Source: Deltaproteobacteria bacterium (GTDB lineage Bacteria > JAMCPX01). From it: a DNA stretch of 64,000 nt. The position numbers and the translations under genes are program-made. Location of the stretch: contig JAMCPX010000061.1 of the NCBI GenBank assembly GCA_023382265.1, positions 1-64,000 on the forward strand. Reading direction: 5' to 3'. Each line of letters begins with the position of its first letter. Positions within the stretch are counted from its first letter, which is position 1. Below, piece by piece: positions 52,910-63,821 of the stretch. A model generated the notes under the pieces. The model was given only the letters and a program-made list of their open reading frames with translations, had not been told where the DNA came from and did not search any database.

Positions 52910-52998
52910 GGAGAGGTGTCCGAGCGGTTTAAGGAGCACGCCTGGAGAGCGTGTGTCCCGAGCAATTGGGACCGTGGGTTCGAATCCCACCCTCTCCG
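52910..52998 (+). tRNA. tRNA-Ser (GGA)
   Basis: Acceptor GGAGAGG / CCTCTCC, loop CTGGAGA with anticodon GGA, long variable arm (GTCCCGAGCAATTGGGAC) and T-loop GTTCGAATC: a type II tRNA. Discriminator G at 52998. No CCA is encoded. Confidence 0.97.
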
Positions 52999-54903: not shown

Positions 54904-56151
54904 ATGGGCTTTGTAAAGGGCTTAAGATGCCGTGAATGTGGTGAAGTGTATCCTGAATCGCCTGTTCATGTCTGTGAGTTATGCTTTGGACCACTTGAAG
55001 TAGTGTATGATTATGATAAAATAAAAAAAATATTAACAAAAGATGTCATAGCACCACGATCAAAAGGGATGTGGAGATATAAAGAGTTACTCCCGATAAA
55101 AGGAGAACCGGTTGTTGGATATGATACAGGATTTACTCCTCTTATAAAGGCCAATAATCTTGCAAAGATACTCGGTGTTAAAGAGATATACATAAAAAAC
55201 GATACCGTGAATCATCCGACATTCTCGTTTAAGGACAGGGTTGTTTCCGTTGCAATATCAAAAGCAAAGGAGTTTGGATTTGATACAGTTGCCTGTGCAT
55301 CAACAGGAAACCTTGCCAATTCCGTAGCCGCGAATGCAGCTACATGCGGTATGAAAAGTTATGTATTTATCCCGTATAACCTTGAGCAGGCAAAGATCAT
55401 TAACACGCAGGTATACGGGGCAAATGTGATCAGCATTAAGGGTAATTATGATGAAGTAAACAGACTTTCCTCTGAGATAGCCGGTAAATACGGTTGGGCA
55501 TTCGTAAATATTAATATTAGACCTTATTATGCAGAGGGTTCAAAAACGCTTGGTTTTGAAGTTGCAGAACAACTCGGCTGGCGTGTTCCTAAAAACATTG
55601 TTATCCCGATGGCGAGCGGCTCCCTGCTAACAAAAGTATACAAGGCTTTTAAGGAATTACATGAGCTTGGGCTCGTTCCTGATCTTAAAGTGAAGATATA
55701 CGGTGCACAGGCAACAGGTTGCTCCCCCATATCAACAGCAGTAAAAGAGCATCAGGAACTTTTCAGACCTGTAATCCCAAAAACGATTGCCAAGTCACTT
55801 GCTATAGGTAATCCAGCGGATGGTTTTTATGCAATAGATACGATGAATAAAACGGGTGGTTGGGCAGAGGATGTTACCGATAACGAAGTTATAGATGGTA
55901 TAAAACTGCTTGCATCTGCAGAGGGAATTTTTGCAGAAACAGCAGGAGGTGTAACGATAGCCGTCACAAGAAAACTTATAGAAAATGGTAAAATTCCAAA
56001 GGATGAATCCATTGTTGTTCTGATTACAGGTAACGGCCTTAAAACTCAAGAAGTACTGATTAACAGAGTTGATTCGTTAAATATCATACCTGCGAAATTA
56101 GAAGCATTTGATGAATTAATGAAAGGTAAAGAGAAATCAAAAACAAAATAA
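54904..56151 (+). CDS. thrC: threonine synthase-like PLP enzyme
   Basis: A 415-residue fold-type II PLP enzyme. Zinc-ribbon cysteines Cys9, Cys12, Cys24 and Cys27, then the PLP lysine Lys110 in SFKDR and the STGNLANSVAANAA phosphate loop. By family it converts O-phosphohomoserine to threonine. At the head of a sulfur operon, a related role (use of a phosphorylated amino acid as sulfur acceptor, or cysteate synthase, which evolved from this family) is possible. Sequence alone does not decide. Confidence 0.85.
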   Translation: MGFVKGLRCRECGEVYPESPVHVCELCFGPLEVVYDYDKIKKILTKDVIAPRSKGMWRYKELLPIKGEPVVGYDTGFTPLIKANNLAKILGVKEIYIKNDTVNHPTFSFKDRVVSVAISKAKEFGFDTVACASTGNLANSVAANAATCGMKSYVFIPYNLEQAKIINTQVYGANVISIKGNYDEVNRLSSEIAGKYGWAFVNINIRPYYAEGSKTLGFEVAEQLGWRVPKNIVIPMASGSLLTKVYKAFKELHELGLVPDLKVKIYGAQATGCSPISTAVKEHQELFRPVIPKTIAKSLAIGNPADGFYAIDTMNKTGGWAEDVTDNEVIDGIKLLASAEGIFAETAGGVTIAVTRKLIENGKIPKDESIVVLITGNGLKTQEVLINRVDSLNIIPAKLEAFDELMKGKEKSKTK

Positions 56152-56155
56152 TATT

Positions 56156-57097
56156 ATGAAGCATGTAAAGTTAATAAATAACATAGAGCCGGTTATAAGC
56201 GGGACTGTGCTTGAATTTATAGGGAATACACCTTTGTATGAACTCAGGAAACATAACTTTAAAAAAGATAATGTAAATTTATTTGCAAAATTGGAAAAAT
56301 ACAATCCAGGTGGTTCTATTAAAGATAGGGCTGCATTAAGGATGGTACTCGAAGGGATAAAAACAAAAAAACTTACAAGATCAAAAACAATACTCGAGTC
56401 TACCTCCGGTAATACCGGAATAGCCCTTGCAATGATAGGGGCTGTCCTCGATTATAAAGTTAAACTATACGTACCGAAAAATGTCAGTGAGGAAAGAAAG
56501 AAAACATTGAACGCATTTGGTGCTGAAGTCATATATACGGACCCTGTTGAAGGCTCTGACGGTGCTTACAGGGATTGTCTTATAGAGTACGAGAAACATA
56601 GCGAAAGGTATTTTAAGCCTGATCAGTACAATAATCCCGCAAACCCTCTTGCACATTACGATACAACAGCTCTTGAGATCATAGAACAGACAAACGGAAG
56701 TGTTACCCACTTCATAGCGGGTATTGGTACAGCAGGTACGCTTATAGGAACAGGTAAAAGGTTAAAGGAATTTAACCCTTCTATTCAGGTCATAGGCGTG
56801 GAACCGGATTCTCCATTTCACGGACTTGAAGGACTAAAACATCTTGAGAGCTCTATAGTACCGGGAATCTTTGATAAGAGTGTATGCGATAGAATCATTT
56901 ATGTAAAAACAGAGGATGCTTATAACCTTGTGCGCAGGCTTGCAAAGGAAGAAGGGCTGCTCGTAGGTGAGTCTTCCGGAGCAGCGCTCTGGGCAGCGCA
57001 GCAGGTTTCAAAAGAGTTGGAAGAGGCTGTGATAGTTACAATCTTTCCCGATGGAGGAGCTAATTATTTCAGTACGAGATTATGGGATGAGATATGA
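56156..57097 (+). CDS. cysM: cysteine synthase (CysK/CysM family)
   Basis: A 313-residue PLP enzyme. Lys56 in NPGGSIKDRAA binds PLP; ESTSGNTGIALAMIG is the substrate loop; FIAGIGTAGTLIGTG and GESSGAALWAA bind cofactor phosphate. Neighbouring JAMM, sulfur carrier and E1 genes match the arrangement in which CysM takes sulfur from a protein thiocarboxylate (as with Mycobacterium CysO) using O-phosphoserine. ATGA overlap with the peptidase. Confidence 0.9.
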   Translation: MKHVKLINNIEPVISGTVLEFIGNTPLYELRKHNFKKDNVNLFAKLEKYNPGGSIKDRAALRMVLEGIKTKKLTRSKTILESTSGNTGIALAMIGAVLDYKVKLYVPKNVSEERKKTLNAFGAEVIYTDPVEGSDGAYRDCLIEYEKHSERYFKPDQYNNPANPLAHYDTTALEIIEQTNGSVTHFIAGIGTAGTLIGTGKRLKEFNPSIQVIGVEPDSPFHGLEGLKHLESSIVPGIFDKSVCDRIIYVKTEDAYNLVRRLAKEEGLLVGESSGAALWAAQQVSKELEEAVIVTIFPDGGANYFSTRLWDEI

Positions 57098-57501
57098 AGT
57101 TCGTGAAAGAAGCTTTGAATGAAATAACAGCACATATCGAACAGACGTATCCCTATGAGGGGTGCGGGGTCATGCTCGGTGTGGATGATAAAGTTATGAC
57201 GATTTACAAGGGAACGAATATAAGGCAGGACAGAAAAGAAGATCGGTTTCTCCTAGATCCATCTGATATTAACGAGGCAGAGAAATTAGCAAGACAGAAA
57301 AGCATGGATGTTCTGGGATTCTATCATTCACACCCCGATCACCCGGCAATGCCTTCTTCGACAGATTTAGAGGATGCATGGGAAGGTTACTATTATCTTA
57401 TAGCATCTGTAAATCATGGAGAGATCGGGGATGTAGGTTTATTTAAACTTTCGGATGCGAAAAACGATTTTATAAAAGAATTAATAAAAATAGAAGAATA
57501 G
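57094..57501 (+). CDS. JAMM/MPN+ metallopeptidase (Mec-like)
   Basis: A 135-residue zinc peptidase. Complete JAMM signature: Glu22, His78, His80, Ser88 and Asp91, i.e. HxHx7SxxD in HSHPDHPAMPSSTD. Mec of Mycobacterium releases cysteine from the CysO carrier; Wolinella HcyD trims its carrier. Here the next gene makes a carrier with an internal Gly-Gly, so this enzyme could do either or both. Confidence 0.92.
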   Translation: MKFVKEALNEITAHIEQTYPYEGCGVMLGVDDKVMTIYKGTNIRQDRKEDRFLLDPSDINEAEKLARQKSMDVLGFYHSHPDHPAMPSSTDLEDAWEGYYYLIASVNHGEIGDVGLFKLSDAKNDFIKELIKIEE

Positions 57502-57514
57502 TAAGGAGGTTATT

Positions 57515-58039
57515 ATGGCAGTTACAGTAAGAATACCAACACCATTGAGAAAGTATACGAATGGTAAAGATGAGATCAATGTAGAGGGTAAAACCTTGAG
57601 AGAGCTTATGGATAATCTTGATAAAAACTACAAAGGCATTGGTCCCAGAATCATGGATGAAAAAGGCAATATAAGAAGGTTTGTAAACATATACCTCAAT
57701 GATGAGGATATAAGGTTTAAATCCAACCTTGATACCGTTATCAAGGACGGGGATGTAGTATCCATCATCCCTGCTATAGCAGGCGGTGCTGCAAAAAAGG
57801 ATATTAAAAAAAAAGTATACCTGACCTACCAAAAAAGATTACTCAACAAACCCATTATATGGGAGGCGTGCAAAAAATTTGATGTAGTTATAAACATAGG
57901 GACCTCAACGGTATCGGGCGATTTTGGAATTGTTGGTATGGAATTAAAGGGTAAAAGAGAAACGGTAGAGGCACTCATTAAATGGTTCAGTAAGAAGGGT
58001 GTTAAGGTTGAACCAATAGAACAAACAATAGTGGAGTAA
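57515..58039 (+). CDS. MoaD/ThiS-type sulfur carrier fused to a NIL domain
   Basis: A 174-residue fusion. Residues 1-91 are a ubiquitin-like sulfur carrier ending in IIPAIAGG (Gly90-Gly91), the form of CysO. But the chain continues (AAKKDIKKK) into a NIL domain, residues about 98-172 (YLTYQKRLLNKPIIWEACKK, VVINIGTSTVSGDFGIVGME, KGVKVE), a domain known from the methionine importer MetN. The Gly-Gly must be exposed to be adenylated, so cleavage after residue 91 is implied. Ribosome binding site AAGGAGG. Confidence 0.88.
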   Translation: MAVTVRIPTPLRKYTNGKDEINVEGKTLRELMDNLDKNYKGIGPRIMDEKGNIRRFVNIYLNDEDIRFKSNLDTVIKDGDVVSIIPAIAGGAAKKDIKKKVYLTYQKRLLNKPIIWEACKKFDVVINIGTSTVSGDFGIVGMELKGKRETVEALIKWFSKKGVKVEPIEQTIVE

Positions 58040-58041
58040 CA

Positions 58042-58839
58042 ATGCTTACGGACATACAGGTAGAGAGATATTCGAGACATATAATACTTGATGGTGTGGG
58101 TGGCAAGGGACAGGAAAAATTGCTCAATGCAAAAGTCCTTATTATAGGTGCTGGAGGGCTTGGTGCACCTGCGGCCATGTATCTATCAGCAAGCGGTGTT
58201 GGAACTATCGGTGTCGTTGATTTTGATGATGTTGACATATCGAATCTCCAGAGACAGATAATCCATTCTACAATGGATATCGGGACACCAAAGGTTGACT
58301 CAGCGGCAAAGACTATCGGTGCTATTAATCCCGATATTTCTGTAAACAAATACAACGTAAAGCTTACATCTGACAACATAATGGGCATAATAAAGGATTA
58401 TGAGATTATTATCGATGCTACCGATTCGTTTCCCGCAAGATACCTTATAAATGATGCCTGCGTGCTTACAGGAAAGAAAAATGTCTACGGTAGTATTTTC
58501 AAGTTTGAGGGTCAGGCCACGGTATTCTCGCCGCACGAAGGACCATGTCTTAGATGTCTTTATCCTGAGCCCCCACCCCCAGGTATGGTTCCAAGCTGCA
58601 AAGAGGTTGGTGTGCTTGGTGTTGTGCCAGGATTTATAGGTGTTGTTCAGGCAACAGAGGCTGTTAAGCTGATACTTGGTATCGGCAGGCCATTGATCAA
58701 CAGGATGCTAATTTATGATGCGCTTCGCATGGAAGTCAGAGAGATGAAGATTAGAAAGGATCCGGCTTGCCCGCTGTGCGGAGATCATCCAACCGTTACA
58801 GCCCTTATTGATTATGAAGAGTTCTGTGGCGTTAGATGA
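58042..58839 (+). CDS. moeB: E1-like adenylyltransferase ThiF/MoeB
   Basis: A 265-residue enzyme that adenylates the carrier's C-terminal glycine. ATP loop GAGGLGAPAAMYLSASGVG, then DFDDVDISNLQRQI, and zinc cysteines in CLRCLYPEPPPPG and CPLCG. There is no rhodanese domain, so sulfur must come from another protein, such as TusA/DsrE proteins of the same operon. Two bases after the carrier gene; ATGA overlap with the next. Confidence 0.93.
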   Translation: MLTDIQVERYSRHIILDGVGGKGQEKLLNAKVLIIGAGGLGAPAAMYLSASGVGTIGVVDFDDVDISNLQRQIIHSTMDIGTPKVDSAAKTIGAINPDISVNKYNVKLTSDNIMGIIKDYEIIIDATDSFPARYLINDACVLTGKKNVYGSIFKFEGQATVFSPHEGPCLRCLYPEPPPPGMVPSCKEVGVLGVVPGFIGVVQATEAVKLILGIGRPLINRMLIYDALRMEVREMKIRKDPACPLCGDHPTVTALIDYEEFCGVR

Positions 58840-59135
58840 AGCTGTGTGTACTCATTGCACTGAATGGTAAGGGTATAGTTCAAACCCTGAAACAGATTTT
58901 ACAGGATTTCGGTGATGGCATAGAACTGTTTTTATACAATGACGGGGTTTTACTGATCGATGATGAAGATTTTTTATCATTGTCAAAACATATAAAAATA
59001 ACCCTCTGTGATGTAAGCGCGAAAGAGAGAGGGCTTAAGAGGAGAGAAGGATTCAAGTTCGGCAGTCTTTATGACCTTTCAAGTATGATAACGCACGCTG
59101 ATAAGTTCATTCCTCTCGCGGATGGATCTTTATGA
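58836..59135 (+). CDS. small DsrE-like protein (with conserved Cys)
   Basis: A 99-residue protein of DsrE/TusD-like pattern: N-terminal strand, YNDGVLLIDDEDF, then ITLCDVSAKERG, whose Cys58 is at the persulfide position of the family. Start overlaps moeB and stop overlaps the next gene (ATGA each), so it is translationally coupled. Likely a sulfur relay subunit; weakly conserved. Confidence 0.6.
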   Translation: MKLCVLIALNGKGIVQTLKQILQDFGDGIELFLYNDGVLLIDDEDFLSLSKHIKITLCDVSAKERGLKRREGFKFGSLYDLSSMITHADKFIPLADGSL

Positions 59136-59443
59136 AGATAGTAGTATTTATCAAAGAGAAGAACTTAGAAAGGCTTAAAGACGGCATAAGGCTTGCACTT
59201 GGTCTTACTATTAATCACAGAGTCTCTTTGGTTATCACAGGGGTATCTGCTGATATCATTTCTGGTGCATTAAACGATCATGCTTTTAAGGCATCGCTGG
59301 AAGAAAGCATAGGGCTTTTAAATGGTATGTCGGGTGAGGTGCGGTCCCAAAAAGCCATTACAGGCATTGATAAAGCTGGTCTTATATCAAACGGGGAACT
59401 AATGAATTTAACGCTCAATTCCGACTCTGTTGTGGTTTGGTAG
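59132..59443 (+). CDS. small DsrE/DsrF-like protein without Cys
   Basis: A 103-residue protein with a similar alpha/beta pattern (MKIVVFIKEKNLERLKDGIR, VSLVITGVSADII) but no cysteine at all. Together with the preceding gene it resembles the TusD/TusC or DsrE/DsrF pairs in which only one partner carries the active Cys. Function inferred from pattern and context. Confidence 0.5.
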   Translation: MKIVVFIKEKNLERLKDGIRLALGLTINHRVSLVITGVSADIISGALNDHAFKASLEESIGLLNGMSGEVRSQKAITGIDKAGLISNGELMNLTLNSDSVVVW

Positions 59444-59444
59444 T

Positions 59445-60638
59445 ATGGACATAAGTAAGATTTTATCAAATCCCGTATCACTCAAACTCGACATCATGTT
59501 GAGGGGTATAAGGGTTGACCGGGTACTTTTAGATTTATTGAGTAAAAGTAATTACATCTTTACCGTAGAGGGTATAGAGCTTGAGCTGAAAAACGGTATC
59601 AAAGTAAGGGCACCTTATCTTGATAAGGTATCAAGGCGCTCACCGTATATGCTTGATTATGAATCTAAGGAGATAGTGGTTGATGAGCACAGGGTCACTG
59701 TTAAGCTAACAGGCGATTTCCAGATTAACAAAAAGAAAACCTCTAACAATATTTTAATGTCCCGTATAGCGAATCTATACGGCAAGTACCTTGCTATAAC
59801 GCCAACCCCGTCATGCGGATTCTTTGGAGAGAGGCTTGCATGTGCATTCTGTCCTGCGGTTGTAGATGAGCAAAGAGAGGGCAGTGCTGTTTCCGTAGAT
59901 GATGTTCTTGAGACAATCAGAGAGATTTACAAGACAGAGAAGCCGTCGATAATACTTCTGAGCATTGGTGATATGGGAACGGATGATGGTGGAATAGAGT
60001 TTGCGGAACAGTACATTAAAGCCATCCATAAATATTTTAATGTAATGATCATGCTTGAGGTATCGCCGCCAAAATATCCTGAATGGATAGATACTGCTTA
60101 TGGTGCCGGCGCCGATGCGATCTGCTTTAATATAGATATCTTTGATCAGAAGCTCTTTAATGAGTTGTGTCCGGGAAAGGCAAAAGATAATGGCAGGGAA
60201 AGGTATTTTAATGCACTTAAGTACGCAACAGGCATATACCCGCAAGGCACTGTATTAACACATCTTATTCTTGGTATAGAGCCTGTAGAGTCAACCATAA
60301 CAGGCATTCAGTATCTTACTTCAATAGGAGTTGTGCCAATACTCTCTGTATTCAGACCTGTAAATAAGAGTATGATGAAGTATTTTGTAAACCTATCGAT
60401 TGAAGAAATACTGCCTGTTTACACATCTCTTTACTGCTCTATGCGTAAAAACAAGATCCCATTTACGTGGACCAAGCATCTTGGTTTTGCCATTACTCCA
60501 TTAGAGGCAAGCATATTTAATTGCAGAAATGATCTAAAGAACAGAATGGCTCTTATGGTAGAAGGATCAACTGCTATAGATAGTATAAGAGCAGGCATGC
60601 TTCGCATAAGAAGATCACTCAGGGTTAAAGAATTATGA
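59445..60638 (+). CDS. radical SAM-like protein with C-x8-C-x2-C motif
   Basis: A 398-residue protein starting at ATG 59445 (a TTG 15 bases earlier is open). The cysteines Cys124, Cys133 and Cys136 (SCGFFGERLACAFCP) sit at the start of a TIM-barrel-like region (ILLSIGDMGTDDGG, MLEVSPPKY, DAICFNIDIFD, LTHLILGIEP), as in radical SAM enzymes, but with eight instead of three residues in the first gap. A roughly 110-residue N-terminal domain precedes it. Substrate unknown. Confidence 0.7.
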   Translation: MDISKILSNPVSLKLDIMLRGIRVDRVLLDLLSKSNYIFTVEGIELELKNGIKVRAPYLDKVSRRSPYMLDYESKEIVVDEHRVTVKLTGDFQINKKKTSNNILMSRIANLYGKYLAITPTPSCGFFGERLACAFCPAVVDEQREGSAVSVDDVLETIREIYKTEKPSIILLSIGDMGTDDGGIEFAEQYIKAIHKYFNVMIMLEVSPPKYPEWIDTAYGAGADAICFNIDIFDQKLFNELCPGKAKDNGRERYFNALKYATGIYPQGTVLTHLILGIEPVESTITGIQYLTSIGVVPILSVFRPVNKSMMKYFVNLSIEEILPVYTSLYCSMRKNKIPFTWTKHLGFAITPLEASIFNCRNDLKNRMALMVEGSTAIDSIRAGMLRIRRSLRVKEL

Positions 60639-62017
60639 CACAGCAAAAGTATCTAATAGATAAAAGACATATCTCTATTATACTATTTCAAAAATTATAT
60701 AAGCCTGCAGTGTTCTTTATTGTAATTGGTTTATTACTCTTGTGGGAACGGCATCCGGATATTACAGGTTTATCAAATAACGCACATGATACGCTTGGTA
60801 TATTCTTTTTATGTGTGATATTATGGATCACGAATATTATACCGCCTGCAATAACAGGTTTTACAGGCATAGTCCTCCTTGTAATAAGCAAGGCATTACG
60901 GCCGGAAGAGGTTTATCAAATGTTCTTTACAGAGCCCGTATTTTTCATACTTTCTGCATTTGCAATTGCAGCAGGTATGAGAAAAACGGGTGTTGCAAGG
61001 CGCATCACTCTCTGGTTTATCTCTTTGAAAGGAAGGCTGCCGTTGAAAGCTCGGTTGTATATTATGAGCGCTGTTCTTTCTATGCTTATGCCGGAATATG
61101 CTGTTGCTGCGATGCTTATTCCAATTGTACTCGAGTCGGGTACAGGTTATAAAAAATCAGAACTCGTGAGCGTGATGTGGGGAACCCAGATAGGTGGATT
61201 GGCAACATTACTTGGCGGTGCAAGAGGCCCTCTTACCATAGCTATACTTAAAGCAACGAAAGGTATTGATATAAGCTTTTTACAATGGAGCGAGGCTGCA
61301 TTCCCTGTAGCACTTATCTTACTTATAATAGGCTACTGGATAATCTCGCTCTTTTTTAAAGATGAAAACAAACCTGCAATAGAGCTTGGTAACCCGCCCG
61401 GTATTATAAGATTTGAAGAGATTATCATGCTTGGTATTGTTATACTTACAGTTACAGGATGGATTTTATACGGCACTTCGGTAGGCCTTGCCGGTATAGG
61501 GCTGATTGCCATAATTATGCTGTTTGTATTTGGCATATTAAAGGTTGAAGACCTTACCAGACGTATAGATTGGTCTATTATAATAATGTATGGCAGTGCA
61601 ATATCCATAGGTTTTGCGCTTAATAAAACCGGTGCAGCCGCATGGCTTGGGACGTACAGCTCTTTGATATTTCCCGGTGTTATCTCCACAACAATAGGGC
61701 TTTTTTTTATAGCCGTAATCATGACTGAATTTGTCAGCCATTCAGCAGTTGTTGCCGCACTGCTGCCCGTAGGCATAGGCATGTCTGAAAGACTTGGTAT
61801 AAATCCTGTAATAATGGGTATAGGTATTGGACTTGCCTCTGGTATGGCATTTATATTCCCGTTTAGCTCACCTGGAAACATGATCGCCTATTCCTCGGGT
61901 GCTATAAAGCTTAAGGAACTCGCTTTACCAGGATTCATAATGCTTTTCATATCAATTATTATTCTATTCCTGGCAGTGGAATTTTACTATCCCGTGCTTG
62001 GATATGGGAAAATCTGA
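60635..62017 (+). CDS. SLC13/DASS-family anion transporter
   Basis: A 460-residue membrane protein with 11-12 helices of the divalent anion:sodium symporter family (GTQIGGLATLLGGARGPL, EFVSHSAVVAALLPVGIGM, PFSSPGNMIAYSSG). In this operon sulfate, or another sulfur oxyanion, is the likely substrate, while the family also carries dicarboxylates. ATGA overlap with the radical SAM gene. Confidence 0.85.
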   Translation: MTQQKYLIDKRHISIILFQKLYKPAVFFIVIGLLLLWERHPDITGLSNNAHDTLGIFFLCVILWITNIIPPAITGFTGIVLLVISKALRPEEVYQMFFTEPVFFILSAFAIAAGMRKTGVARRITLWFISLKGRLPLKARLYIMSAVLSMLMPEYAVAAMLIPIVLESGTGYKKSELVSVMWGTQIGGLATLLGGARGPLTIAILKATKGIDISFLQWSEAAFPVALILLIIGYWIISLFFKDENKPAIELGNPPGIIRFEEIIMLGIVILTVTGWILYGTSVGLAGIGLIAIIMLFVFGILKVEDLTRRIDWSIIIMYGSAISIGFALNKTGAAAWLGTYSSLIFPGVISTTIGLFFIAVIMTEFVSHSAVVAALLPVGIGMSERLGINPVIMGIGIGLASGMAFIFPFSSPGNMIAYSSGAIKLKELALPGFIMLFISIIILFLAVEFYYPVLGYGKI

Positions 62018-62044: not shown

Positions 62045-62731
62045 ATGATAAAGAAAGAGCAAATAGGGCAAATAGCTAATGAATTTGAGGAGAGGTCCCA
62101 GGAGGAACTCATTGCGTATGCGATAAATGAGTTTAATAAAGACATCGCTTTTGCATGCAGCTTTGGTATGGAAGATGTTTGTATTGTTGATATGATCGCA
62201 AAGGTGGCCCCTGATACGAATATCTTTTATCTGGATACCGGGGTTTTCTTCAAAGAGACTTATGAGCTTATAGAAAGACTCAAAAAAAGATATGGCATAA
62301 AGTTTGAATGTGTAAAGGCACTTATGTCGCTTGAAGAACAGGCAGATAAGTACGGACCGGAATTGTGGAAGAAGAATCCTGATCTTTGCTGTAAGATAAG
62401 AAAGGTGGAGCCGTTGAAGAGAAAACTTGCAACTGTTAAGGCATGGGTTACAGGCATCAGAAGAGAGCAGGCACCAACAAGGGCGAACGCAAAGACAGTA
62501 GAGTGGGATGATAAATTTGGTATAGTGAAATTCAATCCTCTCGTCAGGTGGACAGCCAAGGATGTACTGGGCTATGTTATGGGTCACGGCATCCCCTACA
62601 ACCCTCTTCATGATAAGGGCTATCCGAGTATAGGCTGTGAGCCGTGCACAGCTCCGATTAAAGCCGGCGAAGATCCAAGATCAGGTAGGTGGAAAGGGTT
62701 TGAAAAGAAAGAATGCGGTTTGCACGTATAA
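62045..62731 (+). CDS. cysH: assimilatory APS reductase ([4Fe-4S] type CysH)
   Basis: A 228-residue PP-loop reductase giving sulfite and AMP from adenylylsulfate. FACSFGMEDVCIVDM, TGIRREQAPTRA, catalytic Cys224 in KECGLH. The paired cysteines CC (115-116) and CxxC (198-201) bind a [4Fe-4S] cluster and mark it as an APS rather than PAPS enzyme. Ribosome binding site AAAAGGAGG. Neither ATP sulfurylase nor sulfite reductase is in the window. Confidence 0.93.
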   Translation: MIKKEQIGQIANEFEERSQEELIAYAINEFNKDIAFACSFGMEDVCIVDMIAKVAPDTNIFYLDTGVFFKETYELIERLKKRYGIKFECVKALMSLEEQADKYGPELWKKNPDLCCKIRKVEPLKRKLATVKAWVTGIRREQAPTRANAKTVEWDDKFGIVKFNPLVRWTAKDVLGYVMGHGIPYNPLHDKGYPSIGCEPCTAPIKAGEDPRSGRWKGFEKKECGLHV

Positions 62732-62743
62732 AAAGGAGGTAAT

Positions 62744-63217
62744 ATGAACAAAGCATCAATAATCGTGCTCTCAGGCGATATGGATAAGGTCATTGCAGCA
62801 TTTAACATCGCAATAGGTGCTGCATCATCAGGTATGGATGTTACAATGCTATTTACTTTCTGGGGACTTAATGTGCTTAGGAAGGATAAGATTGGCGCTA
62901 ATGCAAAGGGCATAATGCAGAAGATGCTCACGTGGATGAATAAGGGCGGAACAGAAAACCTGCCTATGTCAAGATTCAATATGTTTGGGCTTGGAACGTG
63001 GATGATGAAAAAGCTGATGAAGAGATACAAAATGCCGAGTGTAAAAGAACTTTACACAATATCAAAACAACTCGGTGTAAAGGTTATAGCATGCACAATT
63101 ACAATGGGCATGATGGGGATTGCCAAGGAAGATCTTGTGGATGACGTTGATGAGTTTGCAGGCGTTATAACCTATATCAAAGAGGCGCAGGAATCGAAGA
63201 TCAATCTATTTATATAG
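62744..63217 (+). CDS. DsrE2-type sulfur relay protein
   Basis: A 157-residue protein of the DsrE/F-like (DsrE2) group, commonly found beside tusA. IVLSGDMDKVIAAFNIAIGA, TFWGLNVLRKDK, and Cys117 in VIACTITMGMMGI, the usual persulfide site. A hydrophobic N-terminal helix region is present. AAAGGAGG before the ATG. Confidence 0.88.
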   Translation: MNKASIIVLSGDMDKVIAAFNIAIGAASSGMDVTMLFTFWGLNVLRKDKIGANAKGIMQKMLTWMNKGGTENLPMSRFNMFGLGTWMMKKLMKRYKMPSVKELYTISKQLGVKVIACTITMGMMGIAKEDLVDDVDEFAGVITYIKEAQESKINLFI

Positions 63218-63226
63218 GAGGAATAC

Positions 63227-63457
63227 ATGAAGATAGATAAGACAATAGATACAACAGGGCTTTTATGCCCTCTGCCGATACTTAGGACTGCTCAGGCAGT
63301 AAAGGAAATTAAAGCAGGGGAAACACTTGAGATCCTTGCTACGGATCCCGGTATAAAAGAAGATATAAAAAACTGGTGCACCATGACCGGTCATGAACTT
63401 ATTGATATTGTAGATCAGGATGATAAGATTATTGTGCATTTGAAAAAATCCAGTTAG
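63227..63457 (+). CDS. tusA: TusA-family sulfurtransferase
   Basis: A 76-residue SirA/TusA protein; Cys14 in GLLCPLPIL (CPxP motif) carries persulfide sulfur. ILATDPGIKEDIKNWC follows the standard fold. Last gene of the operon, nine bases after the DsrE2 gene, with ATAGGAGG. Confidence 0.94.
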   Translation: MKIDKTIDTTGLLCPLPILRTAQAVKEIKAGETLEILATDPGIKEDIKNWCTMTGHELIDIVDQDDKIIVHLKKSS

Positions 63458-63561: not shown

Positions 63562-63633
63562 GCGGGTGTAGTTCAGTGGTAGAACGTCGCCTTGCCAAGG
63601 CGAAAGTCGTGGGTTCAAATCCCATCGCCCGCT
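63562..63633 (+). tRNA. tRNA-Gly (GCC)
   Basis: Acceptor GCGGGTG / CGCCCGC, anticodon loop TTGCCAA (anticodon GCC), T-loop GTTCAAATC, discriminator T at 63633. No CCA encoded. Confidence 0.97.
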
Positions 63634-63750: not shown

Positions 63751-63821
63751 GGCGGCATAGCCAAGTGGTAAGGCAGCGGTCTGCAAAACCGTTATCTCCG
63801 GTTCAAATCCGGATGCCGCCT
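63751..63821 (+). tRNA. tRNA-Cys (GCA)
   Basis: Acceptor GGCGGCA / TGCCGCC, anticodon loop CTGCAAA (anticodon GCA), T-loop GTTCAAATC, discriminator T typical of tRNA-Cys. No CCA encoded. Its 3' end adjoins an integrase gene, so it is the probable attachment site. Confidence 0.97.

What the first reader, a model, noticed from the sequence alone, without database searches (positions are those of the whole stretch)
57515..58039. Sulfur carrier with internal Gly-Gly fused to a NIL domain
The ubiquitin-like carrier ends in AIAGG at residue 91 but runs on into a roughly 75-residue NIL domain. Activation by the adjacent E1 needs a free Gly-Gly, so a cleavage is implied, and a JAMM peptidase with all catalytic residues is encoded directly upstream. 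The NIL domain (sulfur amino acid binding in MetN) could serve as a feedback sensor that controls maturation. Trimming of a carrier by a JAMM enzyme has a precedent in Wolinella HcyS/HcyD, but there it removes very little.
Basis: partly seen in the sequence, partly recalled or inferred. Interest (0 to 1): 0.75.

Follow-up and report, generated by a model that had tools for sequence, protein, structure and literature searches.

The report
Sulfur carrier fused to methionine-sensor domain
A small protein that ferries sulfur for making methionine is joined in one gene to a domain that probably senses methionine, so it must be cut, or produced in two forms, to work; it sits in an operon for a recently described methionine route whose key enzyme standard annotation mislabels as threonine synthase.

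Summary
Window 57515-58039 encodes 174 aa: a CysO-type carrier with Gly90-Gly91, then a NIL domain. All eight genomes of the window's family that hold the gene have the fusion and a JAMM gene directly upstream.

Comparison changes the interpretation. Most relatives encode carrier and NIL as two genes overlapping by 4 nt, so NIL is not intrinsically a maturation lock. Split carriers nearly all keep 1-9 residues after Gly-Gly, so trimming is the general rule and the fusion is its extreme. Fusions without a JAMM neighbour exist.

The upstream "threonine synthase" is a paralogue with a remodelled active site; a genuine one lies elsewhere in the genome. SAM riboswitches precede the cluster in 23 of 40 loci examined outside the window. 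Known homocysteine-forming enzymes are missing from nine cluster genomes that do have methionine synthase. This fits the MetM/MetO route (Hasebe 2024), so the protein is a MetO-NIL fusion.

Unexpectedly, the junction carries the only A9 run on the window's plus strand. Its two Lys codons conserved in all eight family genomes are AAA throughout, against 1-5 of 8 at 20 other conserved lysines. Slippage there could release carrier without NIL.

Cleavage, sensing and slippage are inferred, not shown.

The parts
54904..56151 (+). MetM-like homocysteine synthase (annotated 'threonine synthase', ThrC1), 415 aa
   Evidence: NCBIfam would call it threonine synthase. T88->L, S155->N, R160->Y and N188->S relative to Thermus ThrC numbering, and the same motif changes run through >70 relatives. 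A genuine ThrC2 exists at G000:C26. It falls in one clade with an actinomycete SAM-riboswitch/ThrC-like/carrier cluster.
56156..57097 (+). CysM-like cysteine synthase, 313 aa
   Evidence: Pfam PALP 1.2e-69; nearest structure E. coli CysM 2bhs
57094..57501 (+). JAMM/Prok-JAB metallopeptidase, 135 aa, complete motif (E22, H78, H80, S88, D91); candidate carrier-trimming and product-releasing protease
   Evidence: Prok-JAB 1e-21; motif conserved in cluster relatives
57515..57787 (+). MetO/CysO-type ubiquitin-like sulfur carrier domain, residues 1-91, ending AIAGG
   Evidence: ThiS 3.6e-17; CysO 3dwg E 1.3e-24; Foldseek TMt 0.88-0.92 to CysO
57788..57814 (+). linker AAKKDIKKK, predicted scissile bond Gly91-Ala92
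   Evidence: pLDDT below 50 at residues 88-94. The residue after Gly-Gly is A/S/T in 21 of 23 fused sequences, small (A/S/T/G) in 20 of 63 split tails.
57806..57814 (+). A9 run (AAA AAA AAA, Lys98-100) at the fusion junction, candidate slippage site
   Evidence: Only A9 run on the + strand of the window. Lys99 and Lys100 are AAA in 8/8 family genomes, against 1-5/8 for the other 20 conserved Lys columns.
57806..58036 (+). NIL domain, residues 98-174; Asn127 aligns with E. coli MetN Asn295 (L-Met contact)
   Evidence: NIL 3.9e-9; MetN C2 alignment; N295A abolishes L-Met binding at C2 (PMC12357092)
58042..58839 (+). E1/MoeB-like adenylyltransferase, no rhodanese domain, 265 aa
   Evidence: ThiF 3e-83; MoeB/UbaA-like
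58836..59135 (+). DsrE-like small protein, 99 aa; possible sulfur relay
   Evidence: DsrE 1.1e-5
59132..59443 (+). 103-aa protein without a family match, seen only in the window's family
   Evidence: no Pfam or NCBIfam match; found in family loci only
59430..60638 (+). radical SAM protein of the cluster
   Evidence: Radical_SAM 2.4e-8 and variant_rSAM 9.7e-49; conserved in cluster relatives
60635..62017 (+). SLC13-like membrane transporter (my assignment from sequence), likely sulfate or another anion
   Evidence: conserved at the same place in relatives; the family was not tested by HMM
62045..62731 (+). CysH (APS/PAPS reductase)
   Evidence: PAPS_reduct 1.1e-51
62744..63457 (+). DsrE2 (62744-63217) and TusA-like (63227-63457) sulfur-relay proteins
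   Evidence: DrsE_2 2.5e-48; TusA 9.8e-16

Best explanation
The protein is the sulfur carrier of a MetM/MetO-type homocysteine (methionine) route, fused to a NIL domain. Proposed mechanism: (1) a protease, most likely the adjacent JAMM, cuts after Gly91. (2) The E1-like enzyme adenylates Gly91 and sulfur is loaded as a thiocarboxylate. (3) The ThrC-like enzyme MetM transfers it to O-phosphohomoserine, giving homocysteine or a carrier-homocysteine adduct that the same JAMM can hydrolyse, as Mec does for CysO-cysteine. (4) NIL, a MetN-C2-like amino-acid-binding domain, works mainly as a separate protein (a separate gene in most relatives, released by cleavage here) that reports methionine or homocysteine to this machinery. 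Shown here: domain identities, operon, conservation of Gly-Gly, the split organisation in most relatives, SAM-riboswitch control in relatives, and absence of the usual homocysteine enzymes. Inferred: cleavage by this JAMM, the thiocarboxylate chemistry in this organism, and NIL as sensor.
For: The ThrC-like gene lies upstream of or next to the carrier in nearly every locus. SAM riboswitches precede the cluster in 23 of 40 loci, from Deltaproteobacteria-labelled, Planctomycetota, Kiritimatiellota and Actinomycetota genomes. The ThrC-like enzyme has lost the phosphate-site residues of threonine synthase while a bona fide ThrC2 is in the same genome. Nine cluster genomes, the window's included, have MetH-type S-methyltransferase but no full-length MetB/C/Y/Z family member, no MetX and no HcyBio. 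In 395 genomes of a related phylum HcyBio is in 13 of 52 carrier-positive and 250 of 343 carrier-negative genomes. A published homocysteine synthase MetM uses O-phosphohomoserine with carrier MetO under a SAM riboswitch (Hasebe 2024, reported in PMC12172450). Of 65 split carriers only 3 end exactly at Gly-Gly. JAMM was found in 34 of 38 carrier genomes checked, one of the four exceptions (G018) being a carrier that needs no trimming.
Against: The window's own family has no recognisable SAM riboswitch upstream. One fused clade (L112, L114-L119) mostly carries HcyBio as well, so the route is redundant or different there. Fused loci L105/L106 have no JAMM neighbour, and G147, G119 and G341 show no clear JAMM at all. 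I could not read the MetM paper or compare its sequence directly. NIL's ligand is inferred from 20-25% identity to MetN C2. Homoserine kinase was not searched for.
Confidence: 0.6

Rival explanations
1. The A9 run at the junction is a programmed slippage site (transcriptional, or ribosomal frameshifting). One gene gives both MetO-NIL and a short MetO that ends 11-21 residues after Gly-Gly and is then trimmed, re-creating the two-gene state of the relatives.
For: It is the only A9 run on the window's + strand. Of 22 lysine columns conserved in eight family genomes only Lys99 and Lys100 are AAA in all; the other 20 have 1-5 of 8, although only about 30-50% of codons at conserved residues are identical between genomes. 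It is kept in genomes where AAA is 25-37% of Lys codons, and a separate fused clade (L105, L106, L110) has A10 at the same place. Loss of one A gives a stop 2 codons after the run in 8 of 11 sequences.
Against: No expression data. Other fused lineages (L006, L107-L109, L112-L119) have no such run. L003 has A8. No obvious frameshift-stimulating stem was found. Slipped products still carry a tail and need trimming. The run could be kept for translation speed or mRNA openness.
Confidence: 0.2
2. The fusion is the first reader's lock: the attached NIL domain blocks activation until a methionine-dependent switch lets the JAMM cut, so cleavage itself is the regulated step.
For: NIL carries the Met-contact Asn; the JAMM is adjacent in the family; the residue after Gly-Gly is constrained to be small in fused proteins.
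Against: Most relatives have NIL as a separate gene. AF2 shows no docking between the domains (pTM 0.50). Some fused loci lack a JAMM neighbour.
Confidence: 0.12
3. It is a CysO-type system: the carrier feeds the adjacent CysM to make cysteine, the JAMM releases cysteine as Mec does, and the ThrC-like enzyme and NIL are incidental.
For: Closest solved relative is CysO; cysM and JAMM are adjacent in the window family.
Against: In Planctomycetota, Kiritimatiellota and Nonomuraea the carrier sits with the ThrC-like gene and a SAM riboswitch without cysM beside it. SAM control points to methionine. Both uses could coexist in the window operon.
Confidence: 0.18
4. The fused protein is not processed; NIL and the buried Gly-Gly form an inactive adaptor or ligand-binding protein, as may be the case for Thermus MoaD-related protein 1v8c, solved with its second domain still attached.
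For: Foldseek matches the whole two-domain layout to 1v8c over 174 columns.
Against: AIAGG is retained in all fused sequences. It is the only hit to the protein in the window genome, so no free carrier was found to replace it.
Confidence: 0.07

Closest known systems
MetM/MetO homocysteine route of Streptomyces (Hasebe et al. 2024, AEM e01247-24; via PMC12172450)
   Same: ThrC-like PLP enzyme acting on O-phosphohomoserine, next to a sulfur carrier gene, SAM riboswitch in many relatives. An actinomycete SAM-riboswitch/ThrC-like/carrier cluster (L133) falls inside the clade of the cluster enzymes.
   Different: The actinomycete carrier L133 ends exactly at Gly-Gly and has no NIL. Here the carrier is fused to NIL or overlaps a NIL gene, and JAMM and E1 genes are in the cluster.
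Wolinella HcyS/HcyD/HcyF homocysteine synthesis (Krishnamoorthy & Begley 2011)
   Same: Carrier trimmed by a JAMM before E1 activation, used for homocysteine.
   Different: The Wolinella route uses an O-acetylhomoserine sulfhydrylase (MetY; from memory); no such enzyme was found here. The piece to remove here is 83 residues.
M. tuberculosis CysO/CysM/Mec
   Same: Closest carrier by sequence and fold; cysM, JAMM and E1-like genes present.
   Different: CysO ends at Gly-Gly; the partner most conserved here is the ThrC-like enzyme.
NIL/ferredoxin + DUF39 (HcyBio) homocysteine pathway
   Same: A NIL protein is required for homocysteine synthesis (PMC5764234).
   Different: No HcyBio in the window genome. 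NIL here has no ferredoxin part and accompanies a carrier.
Thermus MoaD-related protein 1v8c
   Same: MoaD-like domain with internal Gly-Gly followed by a second small domain; whole-length fold match.
   Different: The second domain has no NIL sequence match; its partners were not examined.
MetN C2 regulatory domain
   Same: Same fold and family; Met-contact Asn conserved.
   Different: Part of an ABC transporter; here attached to a carrier or stand-alone.

Membership tests
CysO/MetO-type ThiS/MoaD sulfur carriers | beta-grasp fold with C-terminal Gly-Gly | tested here: met
   Gly-Gly present but internal
CysO/MetO-type ThiS/MoaD sulfur carriers | C-terminal thiocarboxylate formed by a cognate E1 | not testable with these tools
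   E1-like gene adjacent
NIL domain (PF09383) | curated score reached | tested here: met
   36.7 bits against cut-off 24
NIL domain (PF09383) | binds methionine (MetN C2) | not testable with these tools
   contact Asn conserved in 68/71
MetM/MetO homocysteine route | ThrC-like enzyme beside a carrier gene | tested here: met
MetM/MetO homocysteine route | upstream SAM riboswitch | tested here: not met
   absent in the window family, present in 23 of 40 other loci. Not an absolute criterion: reported missing in Microcystis too.
MetM/MetO homocysteine route | enzyme groups with actinomycete MetM | tested here: inconclusive
MetM/MetO homocysteine route | converts O-phosphohomoserine to homocysteine | not testable with these tools
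   genome context only
threonine synthase (ThrC) | substrate phosphate-site residues conserved | tested here: not met
   T88L, S155N, R160Y, N188S/G; which residues bind the phosphate is from memory of the Thermus structure
JAMM/MPN+ metallopeptidase | E...HxH(7)SxxD motif | tested here: met
JAMM-processed carrier (HcyS/QbsE type) | residues after Gly-Gly removed by the JAMM | not testable with these tools
   tails in 62 of 65 split carriers
slippage-controlled gene | conserved homopolymer beyond codon usage | tested here: met
slippage-controlled gene | two products observed | not testable with these tools
   no RNA or protein data

The most novel reading that the evidence does not exclude
A methionine route in which one gene yields, by slippage on a conserved A9 run at the domain junction, both a free sulfur carrier and a carrier-NIL fusion, with NIL sensing methionine and controlling carrier supply; a JAMM protease trims both forms. 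This would join recoding, proteolysis and allosteric feedback in a single 174-residue gene product.
Probability: 0.15. Interest if true: 0.8.

Novelty: new variant of a known kind. Interest (0 to 1): 0.58.

Why it matters
How many bacteria make homocysteine is an acknowledged gap: Price et al. 2018 say at least one more pathway remained to be found. The cluster described here, with SAM-riboswitch control and a misannotated 'threonine synthase', appears to fill that gap in several groups of uncultivated bacteria, anammox planctomycetes among them. The MetO-NIL unit adds a candidate protein-level methionine sensor to a thiocarboxylate pathway, and a defined protease-carrier pair in which the removed part is a whole domain. 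It makes three things directly testable: the function of stand-alone NIL proteins, the processing of carriers by JAMM enzymes, and slippage at a fusion junction.

Tried and rejected
Assembly or frameshift artefact: rejected, since the fusion is in eight independent family assemblies and other lineages. NIL as an obligatory lock: rejected as the general role because NIL is mostly a separate gene. 'JAMM always accompanies the fusion': rejected, since L105 and L106 have none nearby. ThrC1 as the cell's threonine synthase: disfavoured by the genuine ThrC2 and active-site changes, although G001 and G012 showed only ThrC1. Degenerate SAM riboswitch in the window: none found. Internal start for NIL in the fused gene: no conserved start codon at the junction. 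-1 frameshift heptamer A AAA AAG: present in the window but not conserved in the family. An HcyBio-like role for NIL with ferredoxin: no HcyBio in the genome. The MetM paper is not held. A plasmid-collection search gave one informative actinomycete hit. How many times the fusion arose is unresolved: up to three changes on a poorly resolved tree.

Full report
What is there. Window 57515-58039 (+) encodes 174 residues: a ubiquitin-like sulfur carrier (residues 1-91, AIAGG) and a NIL domain (98-174). The carrier is closest to CysO of M. tuberculosis (3dwg, 1.3e-24; Foldseek rank 1) and NIL to the MetN C2 domain. The operon is tightly packed: ThrC-like 54904, CysM 56156, JAMM 57094, carrier-NIL 57515, E1-like 58042, DsrE-like 58836, a 103-aa protein 59132, radical SAM 59430 and an SLC13-like transporter 60635, followed by CysH 62045, DsrE2 62744 and TusA 63227. 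AlphaFold2 with a 44-row alignment gives two confident domains (mean pLDDT 87.6) with no fixed arrangement (pTM 0.50); residues 88-94, which hold Gly90-Gly91, are below pLDDT 50.

Fused and split forms. Eight of nine genomes of the window's family hold the full-length fusion, always with the JAMM directly upstream. About 40 loci outside the family hold carrier and NIL as two genes, most often overlapping by 4 nt. About 16 further fused sequences come from other lineages (L006, L075-L088, L090). On a carrier tree, which is poorly resolved (90 columns), the label needs at most three changes. Of 65 split carriers only three end exactly at Gly-Gly; the rest carry 1-9 extra residues, usually two. 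In the overlapping arrangement the Gly-Gly codons read GGAGG in 33 of 38 loci against 4 of 27 others. The simplest reading is that the carrier's Gly-Gly codons double as the Shine-Dalgarno of the NIL gene, and that the short tail is the price of the overlap. A carrier that must be trimmed anyway can tolerate fusion to a whole domain.

The JAMM. It has the full motif (E22, H78, H80, S88, D91). Genome-wide Prok-JAB matches exist in 34 of 38 carrier-bearing genomes above the cut-off. The four without are G018, whose carrier ends at Gly-Gly; G147 and G119 (fused, no match); and G341 (fused, only weak matches, contig cut). Fused loci L105 and L106 have 17-18 kb held and no JAMM nearby; G084 (L105) has one on another contig. 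So a JAMM usually accompanies a carrier that needs trimming but need not be its neighbour. The residue after Gly-Gly is A, S or T in 21 of 23 fused proteins and small (A/S/T/G) in 20 of 63 split tails (p about 1e-6, not corrected for kinship).

The pathway. The gene most constantly next to or upstream of the carrier is the ThrC-like one. NCBIfam models call it threonine synthase, but relative to Thermus ThrC the positions T88, S155, R160 and N188 are L, N, Y and S, and these motif changes run through more than 70 relatives. The window genome has a second, canonical ThrC at C26:5880-6938, 484 bits to Aquifex ThrC against 193 for the operon copy. SAM riboswitches (RF00162) stand upstream of the cluster in 23 of 40 loci outside the window: 9 of 11, 2 of 10, 7 of 12, 4 of 6 cluster loci and L133. 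In nine genomes, including the window's, there is a MetH-type S-methyltransferase but no full-length Cys/Met-metabolism PLP enzyme, no MetX and no HcyBio. Over 395 genomes of the phylum of G010, HcyBio occurs in 13 of 52 carrier-positive and 250 of 343 carrier-negative genomes (Fisher p 5e-11, not corrected for kinship). Carrier-positive there means a match at E of about 2e-20 or better. This matches the MetM/MetO route described for Streptomyces, in which a ThrC-like MetM makes homocysteine from O-phosphohomoserine, with carrier MetO and a SAM riboswitch (Hasebe et al. 2024, read only through PMC12172450). An actinomycete cluster (Nonomuraea, L133) has a SAM riboswitch, a ThrC-like enzyme with the same motifs (53.7% identity) and a carrier ending exactly at Gly-Gly. 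Its enzyme falls inside the clade of the cluster enzymes and apart from Haloarcula ThrC and ThrC2.

NIL. Asn127 aligns with E. coli MetN Asn295; N295A removes L-Met binding at the regulatory domain (PMC12357092). The Asn is kept in 68 of 71 NIL domains of these clusters. It is the only NIL domain found in the window genome. NIL/ferredoxin proteins are needed for homocysteine synthesis in the unrelated DUF39 route (PMC5764234). A role as methionine or homocysteine sensor for MetM/MetO is the best guess, but it is inference.

The A9 run. At the junction the codons for Lys98-100 are AAA AAA AAA (57806-57814), the only A9 run on the plus strand of the window. Of 22 lysine columns conserved in eight family genomes, Lys99 and Lys100 are AAA in all eight; the other 20 are AAA in one to five. 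Only about 30-50% of codons at conserved residues are identical between these genomes, so synonymous sites are strongly diverged and the run is probably under selection. A separate fused clade has A10 at the same place (L105, L106, L110). Loss of one A gives a stop 2 codons after the run in 8 of 11 sequences, ending the product 8-21 residues after Gly-Gly. Slippage would thus re-create a short-tailed carrier. This was not expected from the finding and has no experimental support yet.

Limits. Most genomes are metagenome assemblies of unknown completeness. Kinship inflates all counts. No expression, binding or cleavage data exist. The primary MetM paper and sequence could not be read.

Noticed in passing
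window 57806-57814: Only A9 run on the + strand of the window, exactly at the carrier/NIL junction, conserved as A8-A10 in all eight family genomes and in a separate fused clade against codon usage.
   Followed up: partly
split loci such as L010, L012, L013, L019, L039: The carrier's Gly-Gly codons read GGAGG in 33 of 38 loci where a NIL start overlaps the carrier stop (4 of 27 elsewhere), so they probably serve as the NIL ribosome-binding site.
   Followed up: yes
window 54904-56151 and relatives: 'Threonine synthase' by NCBIfam models is probably MetM-type homocysteine synthase; annotation pipelines will mislabel it.
   Followed up: yes
L011, L014, L020, L023, L024, L036 (Brocadiaceae, Scalindua): Anammox planctomycetes carry SAM riboswitch - ThrC-like - carrier clusters; their JAMM lies elsewhere between DsrE2 and TusA genes (L129, L130).
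   Followed up: partly
L111-L119: A fused clade whose genomes mostly also have HcyBio and, where tested, lack the SAM riboswitch, as if the carrier-NIL system had another role there.
   Followed up: no
PDB 1v8c (Thermus): MoaD-related protein with internal Gly-Gly and a second small domain matches the whole two-domain layout; unexplained in its own right.
   Followed up: no
window 58836-59443: A DsrE-like protein and a 103-aa protein of no known family follow the E1; seen only in the window's family, possibly a sulfur relay.
   Followed up: no
window 52910-52998, 63562-63633, 63751-63821: Three tRNA genes flank or follow the sulfur operon.
   Followed up: no
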